From an uncultured Opitutia bacterium (GTDB lineage: Bacteria > Verrucomicrobiota > Verrucomicrobiia > Opitutales > Opitutaceae), in NCBI GenBank assembly GCA_903825285.1, contig CAIJZY010000022.1, forward strand, positions 1 to 47,236: a DNA stretch of 47,236 bases, in the 5' to 3' direction. Below the pieces are notes generated by a model. It was given only the letters and a program-made list of their open reading frames with translations. It was not told the origin of the DNA and searched no databases. The position numbers and the translations under genes are program-made. This document shows positions 10,460 to 47,236 of this stretch, in pieces; the first letter of the stretch is position 1; each line of letters begins with the position of its first letter.

Positions 10460-11743
10460 TCACTCCTCCGCCTTCACCTTCACGGAGCCGTCGCTGAATT
10501 CGTTCGTGAGTCGCTGGCCGGGCTTGACCGCCGCGCGGCGCGCGACCGGCCGGCCGACCTCGTCGCGCACGATCGCGAACCCGCGGTTGAGCACCGACGC
10601 CGGGCTCGCCGCCTGCAGGCGCTTGTAGAGCGAGAGCAGCTGGTGTGAGCCGAGCTGCACCCGCGCCTCAGGTGAGGCCTGCGCCAGGCGCGACCGGATC
10701 TCGCCATATTGCTGACGCCGCAGCTGCACCGCCGACCGCAGCGCCGACACGAGGCGGTTCGCGCAGTCGTCGAGTCGCAGGAAACCCTGCTCGATCTGCG
10801 TCGCCGGCGACAGCAGCCGCAGCCGCGACCGCGCGTGGTCGAGCCGCTCCGTGGCGCGCGCGAGCGCGCTCTCGCCCGCTGCCGTCATCGCGGTAGCCGC
10901 CTGCGCCGCCCGCGCGGCGCCGTCCACGAACCGGCTGGAGATCAGTTCCGCCGCCCCGCTGGGGGTCTCGGCCCGGACGTCGGCCGCAAAGTCGCACAGG
11001 GTGAAGTCGATCTCGTGGCCCACCGCCGAGATCACCGGCACCGTGCAGCCCGCCACCGCGCGCACCAGCACCTCCTCGTTGAAGGCCCACAGGTCCTCCA
11101 GACTCCCGCCGCCGCGCCCGATCACCAGCAGGTCAAAGATCCCGAGTGCCTGCGCCAGGCCGAGCATCGCGGCCATCTCCGCCGCCGCGCCCTCGCCCTG
11201 GACCTTCGCCGGGAGCACCACGAGCCGGCCGCGCCAGCCGCGCCGGGACAGGATCCGGATGAAGTCCTGCACCGCCGCGCCCGTCGGCGAGGTCACGAAA
11301 CCCACCGTCGCCGGCATCGCCGGGATCGGCCGCTTCTTCTCCGGGGCGAACAGGCCCTCCGCCGCCAGCCGCTGCTTCAACCGCTCGAACTCCTGCTGCA
11401 GCCGGCCCACGCCGTCCTCGATCACCGCGCGGACGATCAGCTGGTACTGCCCGCGCGCCTCGTAGACGCTCACCTCGCCGTAGGCCACCACCTGCTGGCC
11501 GTCGCGGAGCTTCACCGTCTGCCGCGCCGCGTCGCCGCGGAACAGCACCGCGCTCAGCTGCGCCCCCGCGTCCTTCAGCGAGAAATACACGTGCCCGCTC
11601 GCCTGCGCGCGCAGGTTCGACACCTCGCCGCGCACCCAGCCCGGCCGGATCCCCTCCTCGAGCAGCGTCTTCACGCGCCGCGTGAACTCGCTCACGCTTT
11701 CCGCGCGCGCACCCGAGTCGCCCAGATCGAGTTCAGCCTTCAC
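10460..11743 (-). CDS. xseA: Exodeoxyribonuclease VII large subunit
   Basis: This 427-residue protein is the large, catalytic subunit of exonuclease VII, which degrades single-stranded DNA in the cytoplasm during repair. The N-terminal OB-fold is visible in [15 protein letters not shown] and [20 protein letters not shown]. The core includes [36 protein letters not shown] and [19 protein letters not shown], all hallmarks of XseA. The C-terminal helical part is relatively short. Its start overlaps the end of the TVP38-like gene by 11 bp, so translation may be coupled. The small subunit xseB is not seen in this window. Confidence 0.97.
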
Positions 11744-12407
11744 GCTTCAGAAAACGCTGCCGCAGAAAATGCACCGCCACCACGGCCACGACGATCACGC
11801 CGATGCCCGCCACGACCGTCTTGAAATTTCCGTTCAGCACGCCGCGCCCGAGCACCACCGCACCCACGGCCCAGGGGAGCGTGCACAGCCACGACACCAG
11901 CAGGTACTGCCGGAACGGCACCTCGGCCAGGCCGAGGATGTAGCCCTGCACCGTGTACGGCGGACCGGGGGTCAGACGCACGAGCAGCGTGACGGTCAGC
12001 GAGGTCGCGGGCGTCACCGCCGGCACGCCGTAGCCGTACCGCTTCAGCAGCCCGGTCAGGACCGGGCGGAGCGCGTATCGCGCGAGCCAGTAGATCAGGG
12101 AGAGGTTGACCGCGACGGCCGCCATCACCGCGACGATCACGCCCCAGAGGCCCATCGTGGGGGCAAACGCCTCGCCCGCGGGGATCGTGAACGCCATCAG
12201 CGGCAGGCCCGCCGCCGGCAGCAGGGCCAGGGCCGTGAAGAAGAGTCCCGGACCGGCCCCGCGGATCAACGCCAGGCCGCGGTCCACCAGGTCCCGGAGG
12301 TCCAGCCCGCGCATGACGAGCACGGCCACGACCAGCAGCAGGACTACACCAATGGCCAGCTTGACGATCGGGAGTTTCCTCGGCGGAACCGGGGTGGCGG
12401 ACGACAT
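11733..12407 (-). CDS. TVP38/TMEM64 (DedA-like, SNARE-associated) membrane protein
   Basis: A 224-residue integral membrane protein with about five to six hydrophobic segments. The core LPAAGLPLMAFTIPAGEAFA followed by RLTPGPPYTVQGYILGL corresponds to the re-entrant-loop region of the VTT/DedA domain. Members are linked to lipid scrambling and membrane homeostasis; the exact function is unknown here. The ATG at 12407 gives MSSATPVPPRKLPIVKL followed by the first membrane segment. The longer open frame to 12506 reads through an intergenic repeat and was rejected. It overlaps xseA, which lies downstream on the same strand. Confidence 0.85.
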   Translation of the reverse strand: MSSATPVPPRKLPIVKLAIGVVLLLVVAVLVMRGLDLRDLVDRGLALIRGAGPGLFFTALALLPAAGLPLMAFTIPAGEAFAPTMGLWGVIVAVMAAVAVNLSLIYWLARYALRPVLTGLLKRYGYGVPAVTPATSLTVTLLVRLTPGPPYTVQGYILGLAEVPFRQYLLVSWLCTLPWAVGAVVLGRGVLNGNFKTVVAGIGVIVVAVVAVHFLRQRFLKREG

Positions 12408-34400: not shown

Positions 34401-36407
34401 TTACCAGATCGTGACCCGGTCGGCGGCAGGACGGCGCATCGGGGCGCCCTCGGGGACGTCGAACGCCTTGGCGAACTCGTCGAGGTTCGAGAGCGGGCCG
34501 TTGGCGCGGTAGTTGCCGGGCGAATGCGGGTCGGTCGTGACCTGCAGGCGGAGCGTCTCGGGCCGGAAGTTGATCCGCCACACCGTCGCGTAGCCGAGGA
34601 AGAAGCGCTGCTCGGGCGTGAAGCCGTCGATCTTCGCGCGGCTCTTGCCCTCGAGCGCCTTCTGCAGCGCGCCGTAGGCGACGCGCAGGCCGCCGAGATC
34701 GGCGATGTTCTCGCCCTGGGTGAGCTCGCCGTTGACGTGGAGGCCGTCGAGCACGGTGTAGCCGGAGAACTGCTTCACGATGCCGGCGGCGCGGACACTG
34801 AAACGGTCGGAGCTGGCCTGCGTCCACCAGTCATTGAGGTTGCCGTGCGCGTCGGAGCGCCGGCCGCTGTCGTCGAAGCCGTGCGTCATCTCGTGGCCGA
34901 TGACCACGCCGATGCCGCCGTAGTTGACCGCGTCGTCGGCCTTCGGGTCGAAGAACGGCGGCTGGAGGATGGCGGCGGGGAAGACGATCTCGTTGTTGGT
35001 CTGGCTGTAGTAGGCGTTGACGGTCGGGGGCGTCATGCCCCACTCCGTGCGGTCCACCGGGCCGTTGATCTTGGCGAGGTCGCGGGCCTGCTCGAAGGCG
35101 CGGGCGGCGAGGACGTTGGCGAGGTAGGACTGGCGCGTGACGGTGACCTTGCTGTAGTCGCGCCACTTGTCGGCGTAGCCGATCTTGACGGTGAAGGCGG
35201 CGAGCTTCTCGATCGCCTTGGCCTTGGTGGCGTCATCCATCCACGGCAGCTCGAGGATGCGGTCGTGGAGGGAGGCGCGGAGATCGTTTACGAGCTGGAT
35301 CATCCGGGCCTTGGAGGCGGGCGGGAAGTAGTCGGCGACGTAGAGCTGGCCGAGGGCCTCGCCGAGGTTGTCGTCGACGACGGAGACCACGCGCTTCCAG
35401 CGCGGACGCATCTCGGTGGTGCCGCTGAGGATGCGGCCGTTGAAGGCGAAGTCCTCCTGGACGAACGCATCGCTGAGATAGGGGGACGTGGAGCGGAGCA
35501 GGTGCCAGCGCAGGTAGGCGCGCCAGTCGGCGACCGGGACGGAGGCGAGGGCGGACTCGAAGCCCTTGAAAAAGTCGGGATGGGACAGGTTGACGTCGAC
35601 GAACGCCGGGGCGCCAACGGCGGCGAAGTAGGCCTTGAAGTCCACGGCGGGCGTCGCGGCCGCGGCGGCGGCGAGCGTCATCTTGTGGTAGCTGGCGTAG
35701 GGATTGCGGAGCTTGACGCGCGGCAGGGAGCCGAGGGCGAGCTTGGTCTCCAGGGCCATGACGGCGGCGGCGTTCACCTGCGCGACGTCGGCGGGCTCGC
35801 CGAGGAGAACGAAGAGCTTGGCGATGTGGCCGACGTACTGCTGGCGGATCTTCTGGGACTTCTCGTCGTCGTTGAAGTAGTAGCCGCGCTCGGGCAGGCC
35901 GAGGCCGCCCTGGGCGAGGGTGGCGAGATTCAGGTCGCTGTTCTTCCGGTCGGGGCTGGCGCCGAAACGGAAGCCGCAACTGACGCCGAGGGAGTGGAGG
36001 TGGGCCACCGCGGCGAGGACGTCGGCGGGGTTCTTGATCGCGGCGATGCGGTCGAGCTCGGGCTGGAGCGGCTTGAGGCCGGCGGCGTTGACGGCGGCCT
36101 CATCCATGCCGCTCGCGTAGAAGTCGCCGACCTGCTGCTCCACCAGCGTGCGGCCGGCCGGCTTGGCGGCGACGCGCTCGCAGATCGTGTGGAGGTTGAC
36201 GACGCTCAGGTCGCGGAGCTCGTTGAATGCGCCCCAGCTGCCGTACGCGGCCGGGATGGGGTTGCTCTTCAGCCACGTGCCATTGGCGAAGTGGTAAAAG
36301 TCGTCCTGCGGCTTAACCGTCAGGTCGAAGTTCTTGGGATCGAGCGCCGCCTGCGCGGACGCGCCGAGGAGAAGCGCGGCGGCTGCCGCGAGGATGAGCT
36401 TTCGCAT
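34401..36407 (-). CDS. M13 family metallopeptidase (PepO/neprilysin-like), secreted
   Basis: A 668-residue zinc endopeptidase. The zinc motif HEMTH lies in GVVIGHEMTHGFDDSGRR and the third ligand in TQGENIADLGGLRVAYGAL (ExxxD); both are typical of M13. NAYYSQTNNEIVFPAAILQP is the usual substrate-groove segment before the zinc motif. The C-terminus ends in VTIW, the family's usual closing Trp. From the ATG at 36407 a signal peptide is evident (MRKLILAAAAALLLGASAQA), so it is exported to the periplasm or outside. A longer frame to 36482 was rejected as it buries this signal. It lies 96 bp after the BMC operon's last gene with no clear terminator between. Confidence 0.97.
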   Translation of the reverse strand: MRKLILAAAAALLLGASAQAALDPKNFDLTVKPQDDFYHFANGTWLKSNPIPAAYGSWGAFNELRDLSVVNLHTICERVAAKPAGRTLVEQQVGDFYASGMDEAAVNAAGLKPLQPELDRIAAIKNPADVLAAVAHLHSLGVSCGFRFGASPDRKNSDLNLATLAQGGLGLPERGYYFNDDEKSQKIRQQYVGHIAKLFVLLGEPADVAQVNAAAVMALETKLALGSLPRVKLRNPYASYHKMTLAAAAAATPAVDFKAYFAAVGAPAFVDVNLSHPDFFKGFESALASVPVADWRAYLRWHLLRSTSPYLSDAFVQEDFAFNGRILSGTTEMRPRWKRVVSVVDDNLGEALGQLYVADYFPPASKARMIQLVNDLRASLHDRILELPWMDDATKAKAIEKLAAFTVKIGYADKWRDYSKVTVTRQSYLANVLAARAFEQARDLAKINGPVDRTEWGMTPPTVNAYYSQTNNEIVFPAAILQPPFFDPKADDAVNYGGIGVVIGHEMTHGFDDSGRRSDAHGNLNDWWTQASSDRFSVRAAGIVKQFSGYTVLDGLHVNGELTQGENIADLGGLRVAYGALQKALEGKSRAKIDGFTPEQRFFLGYATVWRINFRPETLRLQVTTDPHSPGNYRANGPLSNLDEFAKAFDVPEGAPMRRPAADRVTIW

Positions 36408-36503
36408 AGGCCGGCGATCCAATCCTTCCCGGCGGGCGACGACGAACATTTTTTCATCGCCGCGGCCCAGCGGCTTGCCCAATGCCCCGCCCGCCGGCGC
36501 GGC

Positions 36504-37346
36504 CTACTTCAAGTGCTGGCGCGTGAAGGCGATGGCCTGGCGGACGAAGGCGTCGCCGTCGGGGCAGACATTCTGGAAAATGCCGCGGCGCCAGCCGAAG
36601 TCGCCGAGGCCGGTGTTGTAGCCCTCGAAGCCGACGTACGCGCACTTCGTGGCGGGCAGCGCGCCGAAGACGGCCGGCCACGGGATGAGTCCGCCGCCGG
36701 GCACGCCGCGGTCGTTCTCGCAGGCGTGCAGGCCCCAGAGCCGGTCGCCGACCGCGCGGATGTCGGCGGCGAAATCGCGGACCTCGGTCACGAGGTGATA
36801 GGTGTCGAGCAGGATGTGCAGGTTCGGGTGCGCCGCGGTGTTCACGAGGTTCAGCATCTGCCGCGGCGTGTTGACCACGTGGGAGCGAAAGCGGCTCATG
36901 GGCTCGAGCACGATCTTCACCCCGGCGCGCTGCGCATACTCGGCGAGCGCGTGCAGGCCCTCGGCGGTGCGGGACTGCTCGTCCGGCGGCGGGCGGCGCT
37001 TCAGGACCTTGCCCGGACGGCCATAGAGCGCGCCGGCGTAGGCGACGGCGCCCAGCTCGGCGGTCTGGTCCACGATGCCCTGGTGAAACTCCAGGGCGCG
37101 GCGGCGGTTGACGGGGTCGTCGTCGGAAAGGTCGGCGCCGTCGGGCCAGGCGCCGCCGGGTCCGACCAGCAGCATGAGCCCGTTGGCCTCGGCGGTGCGC
37201 CGCGTGAGGGCGGCGGAGAAGTGCACGTCCAGTCCGACGGACAGCTCGATCGCGTCGAGCCCGAGCCCGCGGGCCCGGTCCAGCAGCCCGACCTCGGAGT
37301 CGGACCAGCGTTCAGTCCAGAGATAGATGTGCGCGCCGATTTTCAT
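36504..37346 (-). CDS. Sugar epimerase-like TIM barrel protein (tagatose/psicose 3-epimerase type)
   Basis: A 280-residue TIM-barrel protein. Metal-site segments include KIVLEPMSRFRSHVVNT (Glu), NLHILLDTYHLVTE (Asp/His), LWGLHACENDRGVPGGG (His) and YVGFEGYN (Glu). The HACENDRG stretch resembles D-tagatose or D-psicose 3-epimerases and hydroxypyruvate-isomerase-like enzymes. It is the last catabolic gene of the BMC operon, 35 bp after the PanE-like gene. It could convert a keto-sugar or its derivative upstream of the aldolases. The exact substrate cannot be told. Confidence 0.85.
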   Translation of the reverse strand: MKIGAHIYLWTERWSDSEVGLLDRARGLGLDAIELSVGLDVHFSAALTRRTAEANGLMLLVGPGGAWPDGADLSDDDPVNRRRALEFHQGIVDQTAELGAVAYAGALYGRPGKVLKRRPPPDEQSRTAEGLHALAEYAQRAGVKIVLEPMSRFRSHVVNTPRQMLNLVNTAAHPNLHILLDTYHLVTEVRDFAADIRAVGDRLWGLHACENDRGVPGGGLIPWPAVFGALPATKCAYVGFEGYNTGLGDFGWRRGIFQNVCPDGDAFVRQAIAFTRQHLK

Positions 37347-37381
37347 GAAAGGGAATCAAGGCCCGGGCATTGGGCCCGCCG

Positions 37382-38296
37382 TCATTTGAGCGTGGTTTGT
37401 TTCAATTCGGTGTAAAGCCGCGCCAGCTCGGGCATCGCGACGCCCGCCGCCTGGCCGCGGCGGAGCGGCTCGCCCCAGATGGCCTCGAGCTCGATCTCGC
37501 GGCCGGCGAGGAAGTCCACAAGGCTCGACGGCTGGTAGGCGCCGATCGCAGGCGTGCGCTCGATCTGCGCGCAGATGAACGCCTCGGGCACGGTGTGACC
37601 CAGCGCCCGCGCGGCGGCGGCGACCTCGTCCATCAGCACCCGGACCCGCGCGGCCAGCGGCGGCGAGGCGAGGATCCGGTCGGTGGTGATCCCGCCGGCC
37701 ACGACGGCGAGGCCGTTGAACGGGACGTTCCACACCAGCTTGCGCCAGCGCGCCTCGGCGAGGCTGTCCTCGGCGTGGGTGCGGACGCCCGCGGCGGTGA
37801 GCAGCGCGGCGAGGGCGCGGGTGCGGTCGGTGGCGGGGCCGGCGCATTCGCCCAGGTGGATCGTGCCGGGATGAAAGCAGGTGATCTCGCCCGGTGCGGT
37901 GCGCGTGGCCGCGATGAAGCAGAGTCCGCCCAGGGTGCGGCCGGCGCCGGCGATCGCGGCGATCGCCTCCTCGTTGCCGAGGCCGTTCTGGAGCGTGACG
38001 ACCAAGGTGCCCGCGTGCAGCAGCGGCGGCAGGAGCCGCGGCAGCTCGCGGTTTGCGGTGGCCTTGAGCGTGACGAAGGCCAGGTCCACCGGCCCGATCT
38101 CCTCCGCCGTGCCGAACGCCGCGGCCGGCGCGAGGACCTGCGTGCCGGCCTGATCCACCAGCCGCACGCCGTGCGCCCGCACGTGCGCCAGCTCGCCGCG
38201 CATCAGGAAGCGCACGTCGTTGCCGGCCAGCGCGAGCCGCGCGCCGTAATACGTGCCGATGGCGCCGGCGCCGACGATGGCGATGGAGTCGAACAT
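37382..38296 (-). CDS. PanE/ApbA-like 2-dehydropantoate 2-reductase family protein
   Basis: A 304-residue NAD(P)-binding reductase. The N-terminus has IAIVGAGAIGTYYGARLALA (glycine-rich loop), VTLQNGLGNEEAI is the typical second motif, and RWRKLVWNVPFNGLAVVAGG holds the catalytic Lys seen in ketopantoate reductases. Length is normal. It lies 12 bp after the bifunctional aldolase/dehydrogenase gene, so it is probably part of the operon, where a 2-keto acid reductase for pyruvate/lactate chemistry is more plausible than pantothenate synthesis. That substrate idea is inferred from context; D-2-hydroxyacid dehydrogenases of this family are known. No encapsulation-like helix is seen. Confidence 0.86.
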   Translation of the reverse strand: MFDSIAIVGAGAIGTYYGARLALAGNDVRFLMRGELAHVRAHGVRLVDQAGTQVLAPAAAFGTAEEIGPVDLAFVTLKATANRELPRLLPPLLHAGTLVVTLQNGLGNEEAIAAIAGAGRTLGGLCFIAATRTAPGEITCFHPGTIHLGECAGPATDRTRALAALLTAAGVRTHAEDSLAEARWRKLVWNVPFNGLAVVAGGITTDRILASPPLAARVRVLMDEVAAAARALGHTVPEAFICAQIERTPAIGAYQPSSLVDFLAGREIELEAIWGEPLRRGQAAGVAMPELARLYTELKQTTLK

Positions 38297-38308
38297 GGTT
38301 CTGATCGG

Positions 38309-40501
<2,193 letters not shown>

Positions 40502-40521
40502 TTTTAGGAAGTGGCGCGTGG

Positions 40522-40642
40522 CGGGTAGTGAGTGGAAACCCGACCGTCAGCGGTTGCCGTTAAGCCAATTTACAGTAGTGGGACGATGGCGCAAGAAGCA
40601 GGACCTCGAACCGCAGGCATGCGGTTGCGTGCTCGCTACCCG
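40522..40642. repeat. Imperfect inverted repeat (CGGGTAGTGAG) between operon genes
   Basis: The arms CGGGTAGTGAG (40522-40532) and CTCGCTACCCG (40632-40642) pair except for one base. They lie in the 156-bp gap between the two aldolase genes, the largest gap inside the BMC operon, and could shape or split the transcript. Confidence 0.6.
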
Positions 40643-40657
40643 CTCCTGCTCCCAGCC

Positions 40658-41716
40658 CTATTTCCCGGCGATCGATTTCAGGATCTGCGCGGTGATCTGC
40701 TGGACGACGGCCTCGATCTGCGGGTCGGCCGGGGTGGATTCCGGCGCGGCGGGGGTCGCGCAGACGGTGGCGGGCCGGAAATCGGCGCTGTCACACAGCT
40801 CGCACTCCTTGAGGCCGGCGCGCGGGTCGGGCATGCCGAGCTTCTGGCGGAGGTTGATGAGATCCTTGGCCTGGCTGCCGGTGAAGCGGTGCAGCCCGCC
40901 GCCGAGGCCGGCGGCGATCCAGACGGTGCGGCAGTAGGAGTCGATGTTCTCCATCTTCCAGTAGGCATCCTCGACGTCCTTGCCCCAGACGATCACCCCG
41001 TGGTTCTGCATCAGGACGGCCTGGTGGACCTTGCCGACCTCGCCGACCTCGGCCGCGTTGGCGGGCGTGCCGGGCGTCTGGTACTTGGCGACGCCGATCT
41101 TGCCGAGGAACACCTCGGCCTCGGGGATGAGGCAGGACGGGATGTCGACGTTGGCGATGGCGAAGGCGGTGGCGTGCGGCGGGTGGGCGTGGACGCAGGA
41201 CTTGGCCGCGGGCTGGCGCTTCATGATGCCGAAGTGAGTCAGCGCCTCGCTGGTGCGGACGCGCGTGCCGGCGAGCTGCTTGCCGTCGAGGTCCACGAGG
41301 CACATGTCCTCGGGCTTCATGAAGCCCTTGCAGATGAGCGTGGGCGTGCAGAGCGCGAGGTTGTCGCCGACGCGGATGGTGATGTTGCCGCCGTTGCCGT
41401 CGGTGTAGTCGCGGGTCCAGAGCCGCTGGCCGATGTCGCACATGCGGGCCTTGAGCGTCTCGATGGCGGGCGAGTGGAAGAAGCGCTCGATCTCGGCGGG
41501 CGTGCGCGGATCGGTGCCGGGCGCCCACTTGAACTCGTATTCGGGCGTGCTGGGCGCGCCGCCCTTGGCGGGCGCGGCGGCGGCGCCCTTGAAGGCGGGC
41601 TGGGCGCGGCCGCTGAGCACGTCGCGGGCGGACGGGGTGAGGATGGCGCCGGCCGGCGGCTGTTCCCCCTTGCGGAGGAGTTCTTCGGCTTCGCGGGCAG
41701 TGATGACGTTGGCCAT
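40658..41716 (-). CDS. BMC class II aldolase (fuculose/rhamnulose-1-phosphate aldolase type)
   Basis: A 352-residue zinc aldolase for splitting a 6-deoxy-ketohexose-1-phosphate to DHAP and lactaldehyde inside the shell. The core (about residues 80-270) has GNGGNITIRVG (phosphate loop), SCVHAHPPHATAFAIA and MQNHGVIVWGKDVEDAYWK (metal His residues). It is longer than ordinary aldolases of this class (about 215-230 residues). The N-terminal extension contains ILTPSARDVL, a motif shared with other BMC enzymes. The C-terminal extension has a CELC pair, a Pro/Ala linker and a final amphipathic helix (DPQIEAVVQQITAQILKSI), matching an encapsulation peptide. Confidence 0.95.
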   Translation of the reverse strand: MANVITAREAEELLRKGEQPPAGAILTPSARDVLSGRAQPAFKGAAAAPAKGGAPSTPEYEFKWAPGTDPRTPAEIERFFHSPAIETLKARMCDIGQRLWTRDYTDGNGGNITIRVGDNLALCTPTLICKGFMKPEDMCLVDLDGKQLAGTRVRTSEALTHFGIMKRQPAAKSCVHAHPPHATAFAIANVDIPSCLIPEAEVFLGKIGVAKYQTPGTPANAAEVGEVGKVHQAVLMQNHGVIVWGKDVEDAYWKMENIDSYCRTVWIAAGLGGGLHRFTGSQAKDLINLRQKLGMPDPRAGLKECELCDSADFRPATVCATPAAPESTPADPQIEAVVQQITAQILKSIAGK

Positions 41717-41728
41717 GGTGAAAACGGG

Positions 41729-42028
41729 TTAGCGGGTGGGAGGCGTGTAGAAGATCTCGTCGACGATGGCGGCGTTGAACGCGTCCACCGGCGTGGGCTG
41801 GTCGAACGGGGCGGAGGCCTCGGCGCCCTCGGTAAAGCCGATGACGTGGCCCTGGCCGGCGCCGAGATTGTCGTAGACCACGACGCTGCTGCCGGCGGCG
41901 AGCGGCGTCATCGCCTTGCCGGCGAACTCGGCGGCGGTGAACGGCTGCACGAGCAGGAACCGGGCGCCGCGGTAGGCGGGATCCTGCTTGGAGAGCGTGA
42001 CGCGCCCGATGACATGGCCGAGGCGCAT
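41729..42028 (-). CDS. BMC-P shell vertex protein (EutN/CcmL family)
   Basis: A 99-residue pentameric shell protein that caps the vertices of the microcompartment. The start MRLGHVIGRVTLSKQDPAYR followed by ARFLLVQPF, and VVVYDNLGAGQGHVIGFTEG with AIVDEI near the end, follow the EutN/CcmL pattern. It lies 2 bp after the BMC-P gene at 42031. It is the most diverged of the three BMC-P proteins in this operon, with an unusual insert after EGAEASAPF. Confidence 0.92.
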   Translation of the reverse strand: MRLGHVIGRVTLSKQDPAYRGARFLLVQPFTAAEFAGKAMTPLAAGSSVVVYDNLGAGQGHVIGFTEGAEASAPFDQPTPVDAFNAAIVDEIFYTPPTR

Positions 42029-42030
42029 GG

Positions 42031-42306
42031 TCAGGCGTTCTCCCGGTCCCGCGCGTCGACGATCGCGAGGATGATGTTGCGCAGGGGCGACTTCGGGTCG
42101 CCGACGTGGTCGCGCGTCTTGGAGCCGTCGGTGGAGATCAGCACGCGCTGGTGTTGGCCGGCGCTGAGCGGGTCGAGCGCGAGGATCGGAGCGCCCTCGC
42201 TGCGGCCCGTGTCGTCGATCGGCTGGCAGATGACCGAGCGGCAGCCCACCATGCTCGGATGGCAGACGGTTGAGACGATCACTCCGTCGACGCGCGCAAG
42301 GATCAT
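42031..42306 (-). CDS. BMC-P shell vertex protein (EutN/CcmL family)
   Basis: A 91-residue vertex protein starting MILARVDGVIVSTVCHPSMV, followed by SVICQPIDDTGRSEGAPIL, and with RVLISTDGSKTRDHVGDPKS and LAIVDARD at the end. It is shorter, with a loop (TGRSEG) different from the other two BMC-P copies, and several Cys residues near the N-terminus. The gene starts 4 bp after the aldehyde dehydrogenase stop. Confidence 0.92.
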   Translation of the reverse strand: MILARVDGVIVSTVCHPSMVGCRSVICQPIDDTGRSEGAPILALDPLSAGQHQRVLISTDGSKTRDHVGDPKSPLRNIILAIVDARDRENA

Positions 42307-42310
42307 GGGC

Positions 42311-43795
42311 TCAGTAGATGCGGAGGTTGTCCACCATCACGCAGCGGCGCGTGCGGGTGAAGGTGCCGGGGTTGGAGATGCCCTCGCCGGTGGTGGTGGC
42401 GATGGAGTAGCTCAGGTAGCCCTCGCCGCCGAGGCCGAGGCCGGCGACGCTGGGGCCATTCTTGACGAAGAGCGTGGTGTCGAGCGCGCGCGCCATCTGC
42501 GTCATGTGGTCCACGTTGAGCGAGTGGATGATGGCGGAATGCTTGTAGCCGTGCTCGGACTGCTTGGCGTACTCGATCGCCTGCGCGATGCTCTTCACGC
42601 GGACGACCGGCAGCATCGGCATCATCTGCTCCTCCATCACGAACGCATGGTCCACGTCGGTCTCGGCGAAGAGCATCGGCGTGTTGGCCGGGACGTTCGC
42701 GCCCGCGTGGCGGGCGAGGACGGCGGCGTCGGCGCCGACGAGCTGGCGGTTGAGCACGGCGTGCGAGCAGCCGCCGGCGTCCTTGGACGTCGTGAAGGCC
42801 GCGGCCGTGAGCTTGGCCAGCTGGCCGGCGTTGAGCTGGACCGCGCCGGCGCCCTGGAAGCACTCCATGAACTTGTCGGCGTACTGCTCGAGCACGAACA
42901 CCTGCTTCTCGCCGATGCAGAGGAGATTGTTGTCGAAGCCGCCGCCCTGGATGATGTCGCGGGCGGCCTTCTTGAGGCAGCCGGTGCCGTCGATGATGAC
43001 GGGCGGGTTGCCGGGGCCGGCGCAGATGGCGCGCTTGCCGGACTTCATGGCGGCGCTGACGACGCCGGGGCCGCCGGTGACGAGGAGGATGTTGACCGCC
43101 TCGTGCTTCGTGAGCGCGGTAAAGGTGTCGAGCGTCGGCTTGAGGACGGTGCAGACGAGATGCTCGATGCCGAGGGCGGCGTGGATCGCCTCGTTGTAGG
43201 TCCGGACCGCGAGGGCGGCGGAGCGGGCGCCGCCGGGGTGCGGGTTGAAGACGACGGCGTTGCCGGCGGCGACGATGTTGATGATGTTGCCGCTGAGGGT
43301 CGGGATGGAGTGCGTGACCGGGAGGATGGCGCCGATGACGCCGAAGGGCGTGTGCTCCTCCATGGTGATGCCGTGGTCGCCGCTGAGGCCGTAGGGCTTG
43401 ATCCACTCGACGCCCGGGACGAGCTTCACGATCTGGAGCTTCTCGATCTTGTGCTCGAGCCGGCCGATCTTGGTCTCCTCGAACTCGAACTTGCCCCACT
43501 CGACCGCGTGGGCGGTGACGAGCTCCTTGACGATCTCGACGACCTTGGCGCGGCCGGCGACGCCCTTTTCCCGGAGCTGCTCGAAGGCGGCCTGGGCGGC
43601 GACGCAGGCCTCGTTGACGTCTTCAAACACGCCGAAGCGGCCGGCGCGCGCGGAGGGCGCGGCGGCGCGGGCGGGCGCCGGGGCCGGCGCGGAAGGAGCG
43701 GGGGCGGGCGACAGCACCGGCGAGCGGCCGAGGCTGCGCATCACGTCCTCGACCACGGCCCGCAGGGCCTGTTCATCGAGTTGGAGGGAGCTCAT
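42311..43795 (-). CDS. CoA-acylating aldehyde dehydrogenase (PduP/EutE-like), BMC-targeted
   Basis: A 494-residue aldehyde dehydrogenase that oxidises lactaldehyde or a similar aldehyde with NAD+ and CoA to the acyl-CoA. The catalytic Cys is in FDNNLLCIGEKQVFVLEQ. The Gly-rich NAD-binding region (LLVTGGPGVVSAAMKSGKRA) and VIGAILPVTHSIPTLSGNII fit the PduP/EutE group. The first about 20 residues form an amphipathic helix (LDEQALRAVVEDVMRSLG) followed by a Pro/Ala-rich linker, the layout of an encapsulation peptide. It sits between BMC-P genes on both sides. Confidence 0.96.
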   Translation of the reverse strand: MSSLQLDEQALRAVVEDVMRSLGRSPVLSPAPAPSAPAPAPARAAAPSARAGRFGVFEDVNEACVAAQAAFEQLREKGVAGRAKVVEIVKELVTAHAVEWGKFEFEETKIGRLEHKIEKLQIVKLVPGVEWIKPYGLSGDHGITMEEHTPFGVIGAILPVTHSIPTLSGNIINIVAAGNAVVFNPHPGGARSAALAVRTYNEAIHAALGIEHLVCTVLKPTLDTFTALTKHEAVNILLVTGGPGVVSAAMKSGKRAICAGPGNPPVIIDGTGCLKKAARDIIQGGGFDNNLLCIGEKQVFVLEQYADKFMECFQGAGAVQLNAGQLAKLTAAAFTTSKDAGGCSHAVLNRQLVGADAAVLARHAGANVPANTPMLFAETDVDHAFVMEEQMMPMLPVVRVKSIAQAIEYAKQSEHGYKHSAIIHSLNVDHMTQMARALDTTLFVKNGPSVAGLGLGGEGYLSYSIATTTGEGISNPGTFTRTRRCVMVDNLRIY

Positions 43796-43820
43796 GGGAT
43801 TTCAAGGACGCGGCGCGCCC

Positions 43821-44132
43821 TCACTTCTTGGCGGGATAGATCTTCTGGTTGAGGACATCGACGGCATCGACGATGCCGACGACGACGGCGTCCACCGGCA
43901 GGGATTTCATGCCGGTGGCCTGGCGGGCGGAGCTGCCCTGGCAGAACAGCACCACCTCATCGAGGCCGGCGCCGAGGGTGTCGACGGCGACCACCGTGTT
44001 CGCGCCCGCGCGGAACTGGGTGGGGTTGGCCTCGTCCACCAGGAGCGGGCGCAGCATGACCAGTTTGCGGCCCGTCATGGCCTCGTCCTTCTTGGTCGAG
44101 ACCACGGAGCCGATGACGCGTGCGAGGAACAT
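43821..44132 (-). CDS. BMC-P shell vertex protein (EutN/CcmL family)
   Basis: A 103-residue vertex protein: MFLARVIGSVVSTKKDEAMT, GRKLVMLRPLLVDEANPTQF, VVAVDTLGAGLDEVVLFCQG, then VVGIVDAVD. This is the most typical EutN/CcmL member in the operon. The gene lies 27 bp after the upstream BMC-H gene and 25 bp before the aldehyde dehydrogenase. Confidence 0.95.
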   Translation of the reverse strand: MFLARVIGSVVSTKKDEAMTGRKLVMLRPLLVDEANPTQFRAGANTVVAVDTLGAGLDEVVLFCQGSSARQATGMKSLPVDAVVVGIVDAVDVLNQKIYPAKK

Positions 44133-44159
44133 GGGGAGGAGCCGGCCGCGGGCGCCGGG

Positions 44160-44456
44160 TTATTTCTTGGCGGCGACGGCGAACTTCGGGAGGACCACGC
44201 CGACCTCGTCGTGCGGCCGCGGGATGACCTGGACGCTGACGACCTCGCCGACCGTGCGGGCGGCCTGGGCACCGGCGTCGGTGGCGGCCTTGACGGCGGC
44301 GACGTCGCCGATGACGACGGCGGTGACGAGCGCGTTGCCGACCTGCTTCATGGGGCCGGCGAGCGTGACGTTGGCGGACTTGAGCATGGCGTCGACGCCC
44401 GTGACGAGGGCGGTGAGACCGCGGGTTTCGAGGAGACCGATGGCTTTCGAGGACAT
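44160..44456 (-). CDS. BMC-H shell protein (hexameric)
   Basis: A 98-residue single-domain hexamer-forming shell protein: [20 protein letters not shown], then the pore loop in [20 protein letters not shown], and [17 protein letters not shown] near the end. Its pore loop reads GNA, unlike the GGG and GSG of the other two BMC-H proteins here, so its pore chemistry probably differs. The gene follows the acetate kinase. Confidence 0.95.
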
Positions 44457-44502
44457 AAGGATGGTTGGGTTGAAGTTAAAGGGTGGGTGCGGGGCGGGTT
44501 AG

Positions 44503-45699
44503 TTAGTTGGACTGCTGGGCTAAAATGGACCGGCGGGTCTCGCGGGCGACGACGAGCTCCTCGTTGGCGGGGATGACGAAGACCCGCACCTTGGAGCCGG
44601 CGGCGGAAATCTCACCCTCGGCGCGGGTGGCGGCGTTCTTCACGGGGTCGAGGACGAGGCCGAGCTGGTCGAGGTCGGCGCAGATGGCGGCGCGGAGGCC
44701 GGGGTTGTTCTCGCCGATGCCGGCGGTGAAGACGAGGGCGTCGGCGCCGTTGAGCGCGAAGAAGAGGGCGCCGATCCAGTGGCGGGCCGAGTGCACGAGC
44801 ACGTCGAGGGCGAGCTGGGCGCGGGCGTCGCCCTTTTCCGCGGCGGCGCGGATGTCGCGCAGGTCGTTGCTGACGCCGGAGAGGCCGAGCAGGCCGCCCT
44901 CCTTCGTCATCTGGCGCTCCGTCTCGGCGAGCGAGAGCCCGAGCGTCTTCATCACGAACGGCACGGCGGCGGAGTCGAGGTCGCCGACGCGGTTGTTGTG
45001 CGGCAGGCCGGACTGCGGGCTGAGGCCCATGCTGGAGCCGACGGCGACGCCGTCGCGCATGCCGGCGACGGAGCTGCTGCCGCCGAGGTGGCAGGAGATG
45101 ACGCGGAGCGGCGGGCGGCCGGCGGCGACCGGGGCGGGGCCGGCCTGGTAGAGGCCGCGGACGCGCTCGGCGATGTCGTCGCGGCCCAGCAGCTCGGCGG
45201 CACGCTCGGCGATGAACTTGTGGCTGGCGCCGTGGAAGCCGTAGCGGCGGACGCCGGCGCGGTACCACGCCTCGGGGACCGCGTAGCGCGTGGCAGCGGC
45301 GGGCAGCCACTGGTAGAACGCGGTCTCGAAGAGCGCGACCAGCGGGACGCCCGGGAGCTTCTCGCGGAAGCGCCGGATGCCCTCGGCGTAGGCCGGGTTG
45401 TGGGCCGGGGCGATCTCGCGCATGCCCTCGAGGGCGGCGATGGCGCGGTCGTCGGCCGGCACGCAGCCGGTGAGGTCCTTGCCGAGGACCGCCTTGAAGC
45501 CCACGCCGTGGACATCGGCGGTGGTCCGCAGGTGGCCGGCGGCGCGCAGCTCGGCGAGGCAATCCTCGATCGCCTGCCCCTGGTTGCTCACGCGCTCGTA
45601 GCCGCCCTTGGCGAGCAACGACGCCTCCCCCGCCCCGTCGAAGCGAAACAGACGGAACTTGAAGGAGGTGGAGCCGAGGTTGGCGACGAGGATGTTCAT
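44503..45699 (-). CDS. ackA: Acetate kinase family protein (acyl-phosphate to acid plus ATP)
   Basis: A 398-residue kinase of the acetate/propionate/butyrate kinase family, in the usual last step of the BMC pathway. Recognisable pieces are ILVANLGSTSFKFRLF (usually NxGSSSxK), RRYGFHGASHKFI (usually YGFHGTSH), SCHLGGSSSVAGMRDG, SSMGLSPQSGLPHNNRVGDL and LVFTAGIGENNPGLRAAICA. Several conserved positions differ from ordinary acetate kinase, including the loop that usually reads MMGTRSGD. So the acyl group is likely something other than acetate, such as lactyl-phosphate; this is inferred. It is within the shell operon but has no clear encapsulation helix. Confidence 0.9.
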   Translation of the reverse strand: MNILVANLGSTSFKFRLFRFDGAGEASLLAKGGYERVSNQGQAIEDCLAELRAAGHLRTTADVHGVGFKAVLGKDLTGCVPADDRAIAALEGMREIAPAHNPAYAEGIRRFREKLPGVPLVALFETAFYQWLPAAATRYAVPEAWYRAGVRRYGFHGASHKFIAERAAELLGRDDIAERVRGLYQAGPAPVAAGRPPLRVISCHLGGSSSVAGMRDGVAVGSSMGLSPQSGLPHNNRVGDLDSAAVPFVMKTLGLSLAETERQMTKEGGLLGLSGVSNDLRDIRAAAEKGDARAQLALDVLVHSARHWIGALFFALNGADALVFTAGIGENNPGLRAAICADLDQLGLVLDPVKNAATRAEGEISAAGSKVRVFVIPANEELVVARETRRSILAQQSN

Positions 45700-45745
45700 C
45701 GGGCGGCGGGGCCGGCGGGAGGCCGGCGCTCCAGCCTGGACGAGC

Positions 45746-46039
45746 TTAGGCCGCGGGCGTCTGGAGCCACTTGCCGAGACCGGCGAGCTCCTCGTGCGGA
45801 CGCGGGATGACCTGGACGGAGACGACCTCGCCGACCTTGGAGGCGGCTTCGGCGCCGGCGTCGATCGCGGCCTTGATGGCGGCGACGTCGCCGCGGAAAA
45901 ATGCGCACACGTAACCGCTGCCGACCGCCTCGTAACCGGTCATGGTCACGCTGGCGGCCTTGAGGGCGGCATCCGCGGCTTCGAGCATCGCGCAGAGGCC
46001 TTTGGTTTCAATGAGTCCGACTGCTTCCTGGTTTGCCAT
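45746..46039 (-). CDS. BMC-H shell protein (hexameric)
   Basis: A 97-residue hexameric shell protein: [20 protein letters not shown], pore region [20 protein letters not shown], then [20 protein letters not shown]. The pore loop is GSG, the classical type in PduA-like proteins. Two Cys residues are near the pore and the first helix. It lies 23 bp after the BMC-H gene at 46063. Confidence 0.95.
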
Positions 46040-46062
46040 ATAGAAGAGAGTTGAGGTTGCGG

Positions 46063-46332
46063 TTAGAGGCCGACGTTGCGGAGCAGTTCGGCGTGCGGGC
46101 GGGCGATGACGTGGGAGCAGACGAGCTCGCCGACGCGCTTGGCGGCCTGGCTGCCGGCGTCGACCGCGGCCTTGATGCTGCCGATGTCGCCCTTGACGAT
46201 GACGGTGACGAAGCCGCCGCCGATCTGGATCTGGCGAACGAGCGTGACGTTCGCCGCTTTGACCATGGCGTCGCTGGCTTCGACGCTGCCTACATAGCCT
46301 TTGGTTTCTACCATGCCGATGGATTCACTCAT
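46063..46332 (-). CDS. BMC-H shell protein (hexameric)
   Basis: An 89-residue hexameric shell protein: [20 protein letters not shown], pore region [20 protein letters not shown], then [17 protein letters not shown]. It is closest to PduA/EutM-type shell proteins, with GGG in the pore loop. It is the second gene of the operon, 45 bp after pduL. Confidence 0.95.
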
Positions 46333-46377
46333 GATGTATTGGGTGGATGAGGGTTGAGGGGGTGCGGAAAGGGAGGG

Positions 46378-47058
46378 TTATTGCTTGAGCAGCTCGACGG
46401 GCGTGTCGGGCCGGAGGGCGCAGGCGTTGCCCTCGTCGGTGTCGATGTGCACCTCGAGCTTGAACTCGGGGTCGACACGCACGAGGAGGCGGTCGAACGT
46501 GGTGGCGCACGGCCCGCCGACGCGCAGCCGCATGAAGTCGCCGGCCTTCACGCCGTGGAACGCGGCGGCGTCGGGATGCATGTGCACGTGCGGCGCGGCG
46601 CGGATGACGCCCTCGGGCATCTCGAAGAAGCCGTTCGGCCCCATGAGCATGCAGCCGGGCGTGCCGGGAATGTTGCCGGAAAAACGGATCGGCGCCTCGA
46701 AGCCCAGCGCGATCGAGTCGGTGAGCGCCAGCTCAACCTGGTTCAGGGTGCGGCACGGACCGAGAATGCGGAGATTGGAGATCACGCGGCTGCGCGGGCC
46801 GATCAGCGTGACCGTCTCCTTCGCCGCAAACTGGTCCTTCTGGTAGAGCCACTTCAGCGGCGTCAGCTTCGCGCCCTTTCCAAAGAGCGCCTCAACCGCC
46901 TGCGGCGTGAGGTGGCAATGCCGCGCACTGATGTTGACCAGCAGCGGATTCGGCGCCCGGACCGCGTGCGGCATTTCCTTGCCCAGGCGCTGGTAAATCG
47001 ACCGCCGAACGAGGTGTTCAATCTCGACTTTGTGAGGCGATGGAGGGGGTAAGGACAT
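46378..47058 (-). CDS. pduL: PduL-like phosphate acyltransferase, BMC-targeted
   Basis: A 226-residue PduL-type phosphotransacylase that converts acyl-CoA and phosphate to acyl-phosphate, recycling CoA inside the shell. The two-domain PduL pattern is clear: ISARHCHLTPQAVEALFG (HxH metal ligands), APHVHMHPDAAAFHGVKAGD (second His cluster) and LEVHIDTDEGNACALR at the C-terminus. The N-terminal EIEHLVRRSIYQRLG segment is amphipathic and matches an encapsulation helix. It is the first gene of the operon and is divergent from the regulator at 47162. Confidence 0.96.
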   Translation of the reverse strand: MSLPPPSPHKVEIEHLVRRSIYQRLGKEMPHAVRAPNPLLVNISARHCHLTPQAVEALFGKGAKLTPLKWLYQKDQFAAKETVTLIGPRSRVISNLRILGPCRTLNQVELALTDSIALGFEAPIRFSGNIPGTPGCMLMGPNGFFEMPEGVIRAAPHVHMHPDAAAFHGVKAGDFMRLRVGGPCATTFDRLLVRVDPEFKLEVHIDTDEGNACALRPDTPVELLKQ

Positions 47059-47161
47059 GACGCAAGGATAGCGATTTCGTCCAGATACCGCCCAAATTCT
47101 TTCATTTAGTCAACGAAAACATTGCAATATCTTCCAAAACTTTCCAACTTACTCCACATCG
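47059..47161. promoter_or_regulatory. Divergent control region between pduL and the DeoR-type regulator
   Basis: This 103-bp gap is much more AT-rich than its surroundings. It contains an imperfect 19-bp palindrome at 47100-47118 (TTTCATTTAGTCAACGAAA, seven of nine pairs match around G47109). Inside it, on the minus strand, is a TTGACT (47113-47108) that could be the pduL -35 element. Three related hexamers, TTGCAA, TTCCAA and TTCCAA, start at 47122, 47132 and 47142, exactly one helical turn apart. These are candidate operators for the adjacent regulator. No clear Shine-Dalgarno is seen for pduL. Confidence 0.6.
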
Positions 47162-47236
47162 ATGCAAGCTGAAGAGCGACAGTCCAAGATAGAACTCTAT
47201 CTGCAAAAGGCTGAATTCGCATCACTTGAAGAGCTC
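47162..47236 (+). CDS. DeoR-type transcriptional regulator (3' truncated by window edge)
   Basis: The first 25 codons are seen. They read MQAEERQSKIELYLQKAEFA followed by SLEEL, a standard opening of a DeoR-family helix-turn-helix domain (residues of the type RxxxIxxxLxxxxxxSxxEL). Such regulators usually respond to a phosphorylated sugar and control adjacent catabolic genes. Its divergent position against the BMC operon fits the layout known for planctomycete/verrucomicrobial sugar BMC loci. The rest of the gene lies beyond the window, so the ligand domain cannot be seen. Confidence 0.75.
   Translation, partial: MQAEERQSKIELYLQKAEFASLEEL

What the first reader, a model, noticed from the sequence alone, without database searches (positions are those of the whole stretch)
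36504..47236. BMC operon for 6-deoxy-sugar aldolysis, plus accessory genes
pduL, three BMC-H, three BMC-P, a CoA-acylating aldehyde dehydrogenase, an acetate-kinase-family gene, a class II aldolase and a divergent DeoR-type regulator are seen on a continuous stretch. The type is known from planctomycetes and verrucomicrobia (L-fucose/L-rhamnose degradation). Here three further catabolic genes follow on the same strand with short gaps: an aldolase/SDR fusion, a PanE-like reductase and an epimerase-like TIM barrel.
Basis: partly seen in the sequence, partly recalled or inferred. Interest (0 to 1): 0.8.

Follow-up and report, generated by a model that had tools for sequence, protein, structure and literature searches.

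The report
Sugar-degrading microcompartment operon with satellite
The window carries a known type of protein-shelled bacterial organelle for breaking down fucose and rhamnose, and looking around it turned up missing parts on other contigs and a sister form of the organelle that seems to work without its usual core enzymes.

Summary
47058→36504 (minus strand) encodes PduL, three BMC-H, acetate kinase, three BMC-P, CoA-aldehyde dehydrogenase, class II aldolase, then RhaEW, a PanE-like gene and a TIM barrel. Core order matches 16 of 16 PVM loci taken from other genera of the family: a new member of a known kind. Corrections: DeoR is only 25 codons here. Contig C62 overlaps the window end by 141 exact bases and continues DeoR–PduS–PduT-type BMC-T. 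The lactate/malate dehydrogenase common in such loci is missing. PanE is probably CoA-precursor synthesis.
Beyond the reading: an unlinked operon on C14 (pyruvate-type aldolase–bicupin, 2-hydroxyacid dehydrogenase, SDR, TIM barrel, long-linker BMC-T). In 10 relatives it goes with its own BMC-H×3, BMC-P×3 and aldolase (one contig in nine), and no PduL or PVM-type aldehyde dehydrogenase was found in those genomes, one closed. In six, ours included, that shell block is absent and a PVM locus present. In another genus the pyruvate-type aldolase and a related BMC-T head the PVM operon. I read the C14 operon as a substrate module sharing the PVM shell; its chemistry is inferred.

The parts
46378..47058 (-). 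pduL, phosphate propanoyl/acyltransferase (PTAC)
   Evidence: PF06130 E 5e-67; NF011652 228 bits over cut-off 209; the only PF06130 match in the genome
46063..46332 (-). BMC-H shell protein 1
   Evidence: PF00936 E 4e-26
45746..46039 (-). BMC-H shell protein 2
   Evidence: PF00936 E 1e-26
44503..45699 (-). acetate/propionate kinase family (putative lactate kinase)
   Evidence: PF00871 E 5e-88; TIGR00016 286 bits, just under its cut-off of 293
44160..44456 (-). BMC-H shell protein 3
   Evidence: PF00936 E 5e-22
43821..44132 (-). BMC-P vertex protein 1
   Evidence: PF03319 E 1e-28
42311..43795 (-). CoA-acylating aldehyde dehydrogenase, N-terminal encapsulation-peptide-like helix
   Evidence: PF00171; NF011927 575 bits; N-terminal 14-mer amphipathic, 0.9% of shuffles reach it
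42031..42306 (-). BMC-P vertex protein 2
   Evidence: PF03319 E 5e-21
41729..42028 (-). BMC-P vertex protein 3
   Evidence: PF03319 E 3e-18
40658..41716 (-). class II aldolase, signature enzyme; C-terminal encapsulation-peptide-like tail
   Evidence: PF00596 E 1e-44; fuculose-phosphate aldolases among the PDB hits; tail seen by eye in 22 of 22 PVM loci, 4.7% of shuffles as amphipathic
38309..40501 (-). RhaEW-type rhamnulose-1-phosphate aldolase/SDR lactaldehyde dehydrogenase
   Evidence: TIGR02632 979 bits, NF006189 1085 bits, both over cut-off
37382..38296 (-). PanE-like ketopantoate reductase
   Evidence: PF02558/PF08546; TIGR00745 216 bits over cut-off 141
36504..37346 (-). AP_endonuc_2 TIM barrel, epimerase/isomerase-like
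   Evidence: PF01261 E 1e-28; D-psicose 3-epimerase model 119 bits, below cut-off 300
47162..47236 (+). 5' end of deoR (25 codons), continues on C62 (67-858)
   Evidence: sequence; 141-base exact overlap with C62
47130..47147 (+). candidate DeoR operator (TTCCAA repeats) between pduL and deoR
   Evidence: region aligned in 8 loci; pattern exact in 5 of those genomes and one mismatch in the other 3; only match in the window with up to 2 mismatches, 0 expected
47096..47236 (.). 141 bases shared with the start of contig C62, which adds PduS (C62 about 953-2269 +) and PduT-type BMC-T (2278-2829 +)
   Evidence: families

Best explanation
The window holds the main operon of a PVM-type microcompartment for 6-deoxy-sugars in an uncultured member of Verrucomicrobiota (nearest named relatives: Opitutae/Opitutaceae/Verrucomicrobia MAGs). 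Shown: gene content and order, the contig overlap, conservation, absence of the usual lactate/malate dehydrogenase, presence of PduS and a PduT-type BMC-T with a cysteine at the cluster site. Inferred: class II aldolase splits fuculose-1-P/rhamnulose-1-P into DHAP and L-lactaldehyde inside the shell; aldehyde dehydrogenase, PduL and the kinase turn it into lactyl-CoA, lactyl-P and lactate with ATP; NAD+ is regenerated by PduS passing electrons out through the PduT-type pore instead of by lactate dehydrogenase; RhaEW is a parallel, probably cytosolic route for rhamnulose-1-P. A second, unlinked operon (C14) carries a pyruvate-type aldolase with a bicupin, a 2-hydroxyacid dehydrogenase, an SDR, a TIM barrel and a long-linker tandem BMC protein. 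It corresponds to the 5' part of a locus that in sister genomes has its own complete shell, with no PduL or PVM-type aldehyde dehydrogenase found in the genome. In the window's lineage that shell block is missing, and I infer that this module now uses the PVM shell as a substrate extension that delivers an aldehyde (most likely lactaldehyde from a 2-keto-3-deoxy-6-deoxy-sugar acid).
For: Core order in 16 of 16 other family loci and 6 of 6 group A. Join: 141-base identity; DeoR-PduS-PduT collinear in L129, L130, L131, L132 and L154. Lactate/malate dehydrogenase (query from G007) in 4 of 6 group A at 83-100% identity, absent from ours and G003. Cysteine of PduT-type BMC-T aligned in the solved relative 3nwg. 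Module sharing: of 16 genomes with the pyruvate-type aldolase at 75% identity or more among 200 in the family, 6 have PTAC and aldehyde dehydrogenase hits and 10 have neither; the 10 are all the BMC-P-positive genomes of the sample with neither. In some searches, 6 genomes have 7 BMC domains and 8 have 5, never both shells. A neighbour gene (fam17) follows BMC-T directly in 4 of 6 group A, and follows BMC-T, shell block and aldolase in 7 of 8 group B with sequence beyond. In G095 an HpcH aldolase with an encapsulation-peptide-like N-terminus, a bicupin and a two-domain BMC protein (35% identical to ours) directly precede pduL on the same strand. Satellite genes in group A show pN/pS 0.19-0.38 in the three pairs tested.
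Against: The candidate DeoR operator is absent from the satellite loci (fewest mismatches 4-6 of 18) and the group B AraC gene and its conserved upstream stretch are absent from group A, so nothing shows that main operon and satellite are expressed together. The satellite enzymes of group A have no clear encapsulation peptide, and the one on the G095 aldolase is not significant (14% of shuffles). PduS/PduT were seen in only 2 of the 16 other family loci, in G001 they are far from the main locus, and four group A genomes keep both PduS/PduT and the dehydrogenase, so replacement is not clear-cut. Family models do not separate rhamnonate-, glucarate- and HpaI-type substrates (all below cut-off). 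The family-wide dehydrogenase search scored at most 7 candidates a genome.
Confidence: 0.62

Rival explanations
1. Ordinary PVM locus only: the C14 operon is an unrelated cytosolic pathway whose BMC-T is an inherited leftover with no link to the PVM shell.
For: No shared operator, no clear encapsulation peptides on the C14 enzymes, different contig.
Against: BMC-T kept in 6 of 6 group A genomes and under purifying selection in the three pairs tested although six other shell genes are gone from that place; HpcH aldolase, bicupin and a related BMC protein head the PVM operon in G095; a DHDPS-family aldolase with a conserved encapsulation-peptide-like tail directly precedes this BMC-T in 13 of 67 more distant loci.
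Confidence: 0.22
2. Direction reversed: the short satellite is ancestral and group B gained a shell block, AraC and aldolase by insertion, then lost its PVM locus.
For: B shell and B aldolase each form one clade (support 1.0 and 0.998), as one acquisition would give; the PVM locus is widespread in the family (83 of 200 genomes have both BMC-P and PTAC).
Against: The satellite tree mixes A and B, and its B-only branching, read without a root, agrees with the shell tree (some nodes weak), as expected if the block travelled with the satellite and was lost about three times.
Confidence: 0.25
3. Group B is not core-less in function: an unlinked, unrelated aldehyde dehydrogenase or acyltransferase does the job.
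For: Only the PVM aldehyde dehydrogenase sequence (E 1e-10; 1e-30, at most 7 candidates scored a genome) and PF06130 were searched; other ALDH or Pta types were not.
Against: Microcompartment aldehyde dehydrogenases are mostly encoded with the shell genes and related to one another (PMC8217296, passages; exceptions such as ACI exist); no query of mine hits one in the group B loci.
Confidence: 0.35

Closest known systems
PVM bacterial microcompartment (PMC4207490, PMC8217296, PMC8857213; passages read)
   Same: class II aldolase, PduL, CoA-aldehyde dehydrogenase, acetate-kinase-family gene, DeoR regulator, BMC-P triplet; three BMC-H and three BMC-P as reported for marine Verrucomicrobiota; also reported in freshwater Verrucomicrobia MAGs (PMC5615132, passages) and an Opitutaceae isolate (PMC12388122, passages)
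   Different: no lactate/malate dehydrogenase in locus or genome; PduS and PduT-type BMC-T beside DeoR; RhaEW, PanE, TIM barrel downstream; extra satellite with a second BMC-T
GRM5 / PVM-like loci (PMC4207490, passages)
   Same: DeoR regulator, PduS homologue, class II aldolase for fucose and rhamnose
   Different: no glycyl radical enzyme seen among the genes annotated here; gene order is that of PVM
ACI microcompartment of Acidobacteria (PMC8217296, passage)
   Same: group B loci share class II aldolase, 2-hydroxyacid dehydrogenase and three BMC-P
   Different: ACI has an aldehyde dehydrogenase on a satellite; none of the PVM kind found in group B; pyruvate-type aldolase-bicupin and long-linker BMC-T not mentioned for ACI in the text seen
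EUT-module satellite loci (PMC8217296, passage)
   Same: a BMC-T plus aldehyde-generating enzymes away from the main locus, proposed as substrate extension
   Different: pyruvate-type aldolase instead of ethanolamine enzymes; tandem BMC with conserved linker instead of EutL-type permuted BMC-T
ARO microcompartment of Actinobacteria (PMC10470539, passages)
   Same: a microcompartment whose aldehyde dehydrogenase is not of the CoA-dependent family and lacks an encapsulation peptide, so a departure from the standard core has a precedent
   Different: ARO still encodes an aldehyde dehydrogenase; aromatic substrate
RhaEW aldolase/dehydrogenase (PMC3870299, passages)
   Same: window 38309-40501 is an aldolase/SDR fusion of this family (TIGR02632)
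   Different: here encoded behind microcompartment genes; the passages read do not mention microcompartments

Membership tests
PVM microcompartment | class II aldolase signature enzyme in the locus | tested here: met
   PF00596 E 1e-44; fuculose-P aldolase relatives
PVM microcompartment | core: CoA-aldehyde dehydrogenase and PduL-type PTAC | tested here: met
PVM microcompartment | both BMC-H and BMC-P genes, BMC-P triplet | tested here: met
   3 BMC-H, 3 BMC-P; [quoted passage not shown]
PVM microcompartment | DeoR-family regulator and acetate-kinase-family gene | tested here: met
   kinase in window; DeoR across the contig join
PVM microcompartment | lactate/malate dehydrogenase as NAD+ recycler (a prediction in Axen 2014; not treated here as defining, being in 10 of 16 other family loci) | tested here: not met
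   absent from locus; best genome hit 26% identity, E 2e-10, elsewhere
PVM microcompartment | required for growth on fucose/rhamnose, shells visible | not testable with these tools
   needs culture
PduS/PduT electron conduit | RnfC-like flavoprotein with 4Fe-4S domain next to a BMC-T with pore cysteine | tested here: met
   PF01512, PF13534, PF10531; Cys aligned in 3nwg; TIGR02526 only 118 bits, cut-off 250
PduS/PduT electron conduit | electron transfer across the shell | not testable with these tools
   none
RhaEW | aldolase fused to SDR, full-length profile over cut-off | tested here: met
   TIGR02632 979 bits over 2-676 of 676
ACI microcompartment (for group B loci) | aldehyde dehydrogenase on a satellite locus | tested here: inconclusive
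   no PVM-type aldehyde dehydrogenase hit in the 10 group B genomes; an ACI-type one was not searched
Satellite locus (Sutter 2021) | shell proteins and enzymes away from a main locus with BMC-H and BMC-P | tested here: met
   C14 operon with one BMC-T; no BMC-P there

The most novel reading that the evidence does not exclude
Group B is a microcompartment that needs no coenzyme A: a pyruvate-type aldolase splits a 2-keto-3-deoxy-6-deoxy-sugar acid into pyruvate and lactaldehyde, the SDR oxidises lactaldehyde to lactate (as the SDR half of RhaEW does), and the 2-hydroxyacid dehydrogenase reduces pyruvate to lactate, so NAD+ cycles inside a closed shell and PduL, acylating dehydrogenase, kinase and electron export all become dispensable. 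In the window's own lineage the shell of this organelle was dropped and its cargo module moved into the PVM shell: repeated organelle swapping within one genus.
Probability: 0.2. Interest if true: 0.82.

Novelty: new variant of a known kind. Interest (0 to 1): 0.55.

Why it matters
The locus alone is one more PVM organelle. What matters is the comparison it opens: within one genus, genomes carry either a PVM organelle with the full metabolosome core or a shell with two aldolases and neither PduL nor the acylating dehydrogenase, while the same satellite operon stays in both. That makes two open questions testable in close relatives, one of them a closed genome (G062, another genus of the family): what a shell is for when the standard core is absent, and whether cargo modules can move between shells. 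It also ties a tandem BMC protein with a conserved linker to pyruvate-type aldolases in Verrucomicrobiota and Planctomycetota.

Tried and rejected
Rejected: that PanE replaces the missing lactate dehydrogenase, because L127, L150, L153 and L158 have both. Rejected: that the G095 pyruvate-type aldolase is broken; aldolase and bicupin are two separate open genes there, which I take to account for the '3 TGA'. Rejected: common control of main operon and satellite by DeoR; the operator pattern is exact or one mismatch off in 8 PVM loci, 4-6 mismatches off at best in 15 satellite loci. The hydrophobic-moment test for encapsulation peptides (18 termini typed in, five without a usable 14-mer) had little power: only the aldehyde dehydrogenase N-terminus, the window aldolase C-terminus and, unexpectedly, the TIM barrel C-terminus reached 5%; the G095 aldolase (14%), three DHDPS tails (6, 7 and 29%), PduL (12%) and the G062 aldolase (9%) did not, so other encapsulation-peptide calls rest on position and conservation by eye. 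First rpoB tree used wrong frames and was discarded; the repaired one lacks 6 of the 23 genomes asked for and is weak, but shows A and B mixed. The fold of the fam17 protein was useless (mean pLDDT 30); it has no Pfam match. Idea that the satellite SDR is RhaW-like: only 24% identity to the SDR half of RhaEW, so that step of the novel case is by superfamily only. Literature: Erbilgin 2014 is not held and supplements could not be read, so whether Sutter's supplement already lists a group B-like type is unknown; searches (listings) and the passages read gave none.
Full report
Observation. The window is the whole of contig C22 of a 3.74 Mb, 62-contig assembly, 96% complete. The regulator is the exception: the contig ends 25 codons into it. 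Contig C62 starts with the last 141 bases of the window, letter for letter, and goes on with the rest of DeoR (67-858; HTH_DeoR and DeoRC domains), a PduS/RnfC-like flavoprotein with a 4Fe-4S domain (about 953-2269), a BMC-T (2278-2829), and panC on the other strand. The same order DeoR-PduS-BMC-T stands on single contigs in L129, L130, L131 and L132, so I take the join as safe.

What the main operon is. Its core order pduL-H-H-ackA-H-P-AldDH-P-P-aldolase is found in all 16 loci that I took from other genera of the family (picked by me from the PTAC and BMC-P hits) and in all 6 loci of what I call group A. Of 200 family genomes, 98 have BMC-P, 86 have PTAC, 83 both. This is the PVM type, for which lactaldehyde from fucose and rhamnose is the inferred aldehyde (PMC4207490, PMC8217296, PMC8857213; passages; the founding paper is not held). 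Differences: the lactate/malate dehydrogenase (PF00056) found after the aldolase in 10 of 16 other loci and 4 of 6 group A loci is missing here and from the genome, where the best hit is 26% identical. PduS and the PduT-type BMC-T are present in 6 of 6 group A genomes (in G001 far from the main locus, inside a 302 kb contig) and in 2 of the 16 other loci within the stretch taken. They could recycle NAD+ by exporting electrons; a cysteine aligns at the cluster site. That function is inference, and four group A genomes keep both solutions.

The three extra genes. 38309-40501 is a full-length TIGR02632 protein far above cut-off. RhaEW proteins from Chloroflexus and Bacillus turn L-rhamnulose-1-phosphate into DHAP and L-lactate with NAD+ (PMC3870299, passages), so this is a second route for rhamnose that need not release lactaldehyde; it has no encapsulation signal that I can see. 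The PanE-like gene recurs next to these operons, with panC on the other flank, in L127, L150, L153 and L158 (PF02569 checked here and in L158); I read the pair as CoA-precursor synthesis. The TIM barrel is epimerase-like, unassigned, and is followed by an M13 peptidase here and, by sequence, in L127.

A satellite operon. A genome-wide search found a second BMC-T on contig C14, last in an operon of HpcH/HpaI aldolase fused to two cupins, 2-hydroxyacid dehydrogenase, SDR and TIM barrel. A scan of the 84,980-species collection with this BMC-T gave 121 confirmed places, of which the best 80 were kept. 13 are close (73-84% identity; Opitutae, Opitutaceae or Verrucomicrobia MAGs); all 13 show the operon as far as the contig reaches, L025 only from the SDR on.

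Two kinds of genome. Among those 13 plus ours, 6 (group A) have 7 BMC domains, a PVM main locus and the satellite elsewhere; 8 (group B) have 5, and there the satellite runs on into three BMC-H, three BMC-P and a class II aldolase, L026 being cut after the first BMC-P. PTAC and the acylating aldehyde dehydrogenase are found in 6 of 6 and in 0 of 8, all candidates scored. In the 200-genome family sample the satellite aldolase is found at 75% identity or more in 16 genomes (a 17th, G095, at 40%): 6 with PTAC and dehydrogenase hits, 10 with neither. Those 10 are exactly the BMC-P-positive genomes with neither. They are the 8 above (matched by contig and coordinates), G209 (its shell genes and aldolase operon lie on two contigs) and G062, a closed 4.3 Mb genome whose locus is complete. 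For G062 and G209 the dehydrogenase rests alone, which scored at most 7 candidates a genome. Six of the 10 belong to one genus, so they are not independent; the others come from four genera. Five further BMC-P-positive genomes lack PTAC but have a dehydrogenase hit; two of these (G144, G161) carry a different, more distant BMC locus. Three BMC-P-positive genomes (G071, G148, G172) have PTAC but no dehydrogenase hit, and three (G027, G100, G121) have PTAC without BMC-P; I put these down to incomplete assemblies without testing it.

How A and B are related. A gene of unknown family (fam17) follows the group B aldolase in 7 of 8 loci with sequence beyond it, and follows BMC-T directly in 4 of 6 group A loci, not in ours or G003: the shell-and-aldolase block is present or absent between the same two neighbours. 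A divergent AraC gene is present in 8 of 8 group B loci that reach far enough and in 0 of 6 group A (one 30% partial hit in L018). Shell proteins and aldolases of group B form single clades (support 1.0, 0.998), while the satellite proteins of A and B are interleaved, needing about three changes, some nodes being weak. I favour repeated loss of the block in lineages with a PVM locus; the reverse is a live rival. The aldolase C-terminal encapsulation-peptide-like tail is seen by eye in 22 of 22 PVM loci and is missing in 8 of 9 group B loci, G062 keeping it. Satellite genes of group A show pN/pS 0.19-0.38 in three pairs, like three main-operon genes (0.15-0.43).

Link of module and organelle. 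In G095 (another genus) an HpcH aldolase with an N-terminal helix resembling an encapsulation peptide, a bicupin and a two-domain BMC protein 35% identical to the satellite BMC-T stand directly before pduL in a complete PVM operon; the helix is not significant by hydrophobic moment (14% of shuffles), and that BMC protein has a linker but not the linker motif below. In 13 of the 67 more distant loci a DHDPS-family aldolase directly precedes the satellite BMC-T family and ends in a conserved helix-like tail (6, 7 and 29% of shuffles for the three tested). In 11 more an AP_endonuc_2 TIM barrel precedes it; in L048 a PVM locus ends about 3 kb upstream; the neighbours of the rest were listed but not annotated systematically. 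So a pyruvate-type aldolase is paired with this kind of BMC protein in two different enzyme families. The family keeps a linker motif (E..pL..Q.VV) between its two domains in the alignment of 80 sequences. Its model (pLDDT 89, pTM 0.86) fits the engineered tandem BMC-H fusion 6NER (TM 0.70-0.72) better than natural BMC-T such as PduT (0.36-0.40).

Mechanism. For the main operon I follow the published PVM scheme. For the satellite, the catalytic residues of the HpcH aldolase, SDR and TIM barrel are present by eye from recalled motifs, and an alpha-L-fucosidase-like gene lies upstream in five of the 13 close loci (the one scanned is just below the Pfam cut-off). Lactaldehyde as product is the simplest link to the PVM core in G095, but family models do not single out a substrate. 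In group B the SDR and the hydroxyacid dehydrogenase could balance NAD+ between lactaldehyde and pyruvate without CoA; this is a proposal. The hydroxypyruvate-isomerase-like score of the TIM barrel (35-37 bits) would also allow a tartronate-semialdehyde route.

Verdict. The given finding is a good but ordinary PVM locus, slightly misdescribed at its end. The surroundings are more interesting than the locus. I did not find the group B architecture in the searches and passages named, but the supplement of the 2021 catalogue, which groups loci lacking the dehydrogenase as BUF, was not readable.

Noticed in passing
window 37382-38296 and L013 2981-3844: panE-like and panC genes flank the BMC operon on both sides here and in several other genera: CoA-precursor genes beside a CoA-using organelle.
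   Followed up: partly
L151 10721-14851: GntR/FCD regulator, HpcH aldolase with EP-like N-terminus, bicupin and a two-domain BMC protein head a complete PVM operon in another genus.
   Followed up: yes
L053 7967-9663 and 12 other loci among L030-L096: DHDPS-family aldolase with conserved C-terminal EP-like tail directly before the long-linker BMC-T in Planctomycetota and Verrucomicrobiota MAGs.
   Followed up: partly
L135 3326-6562, L136 8209-11446: A different BMC locus (aldehyde dehydrogenase 40-42% identical to the window's, BMC-T, BMC-P genes) in two genomes without a PTAC hit.
   Followed up: no
L148 about 10700-12300: Roughly 1.6 kb extra between BMC-P1 and the aldehyde dehydrogenase in a PVM locus of a one-contig genome.
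   Followed up: no
L069 9273-10358, L078 10082-11164: Enolase-superfamily gene (sugar-acid dehydratase-like, all named models below cut-off) downstream of the long-linker BMC-T; such enzymes can make 2-keto-3-deoxy acids.
   Followed up: partly
window 34401-36482: M13 peptidase 21 bases after the TIM barrel on the same strand; a like neighbour is seen in L127.
   Followed up: partly
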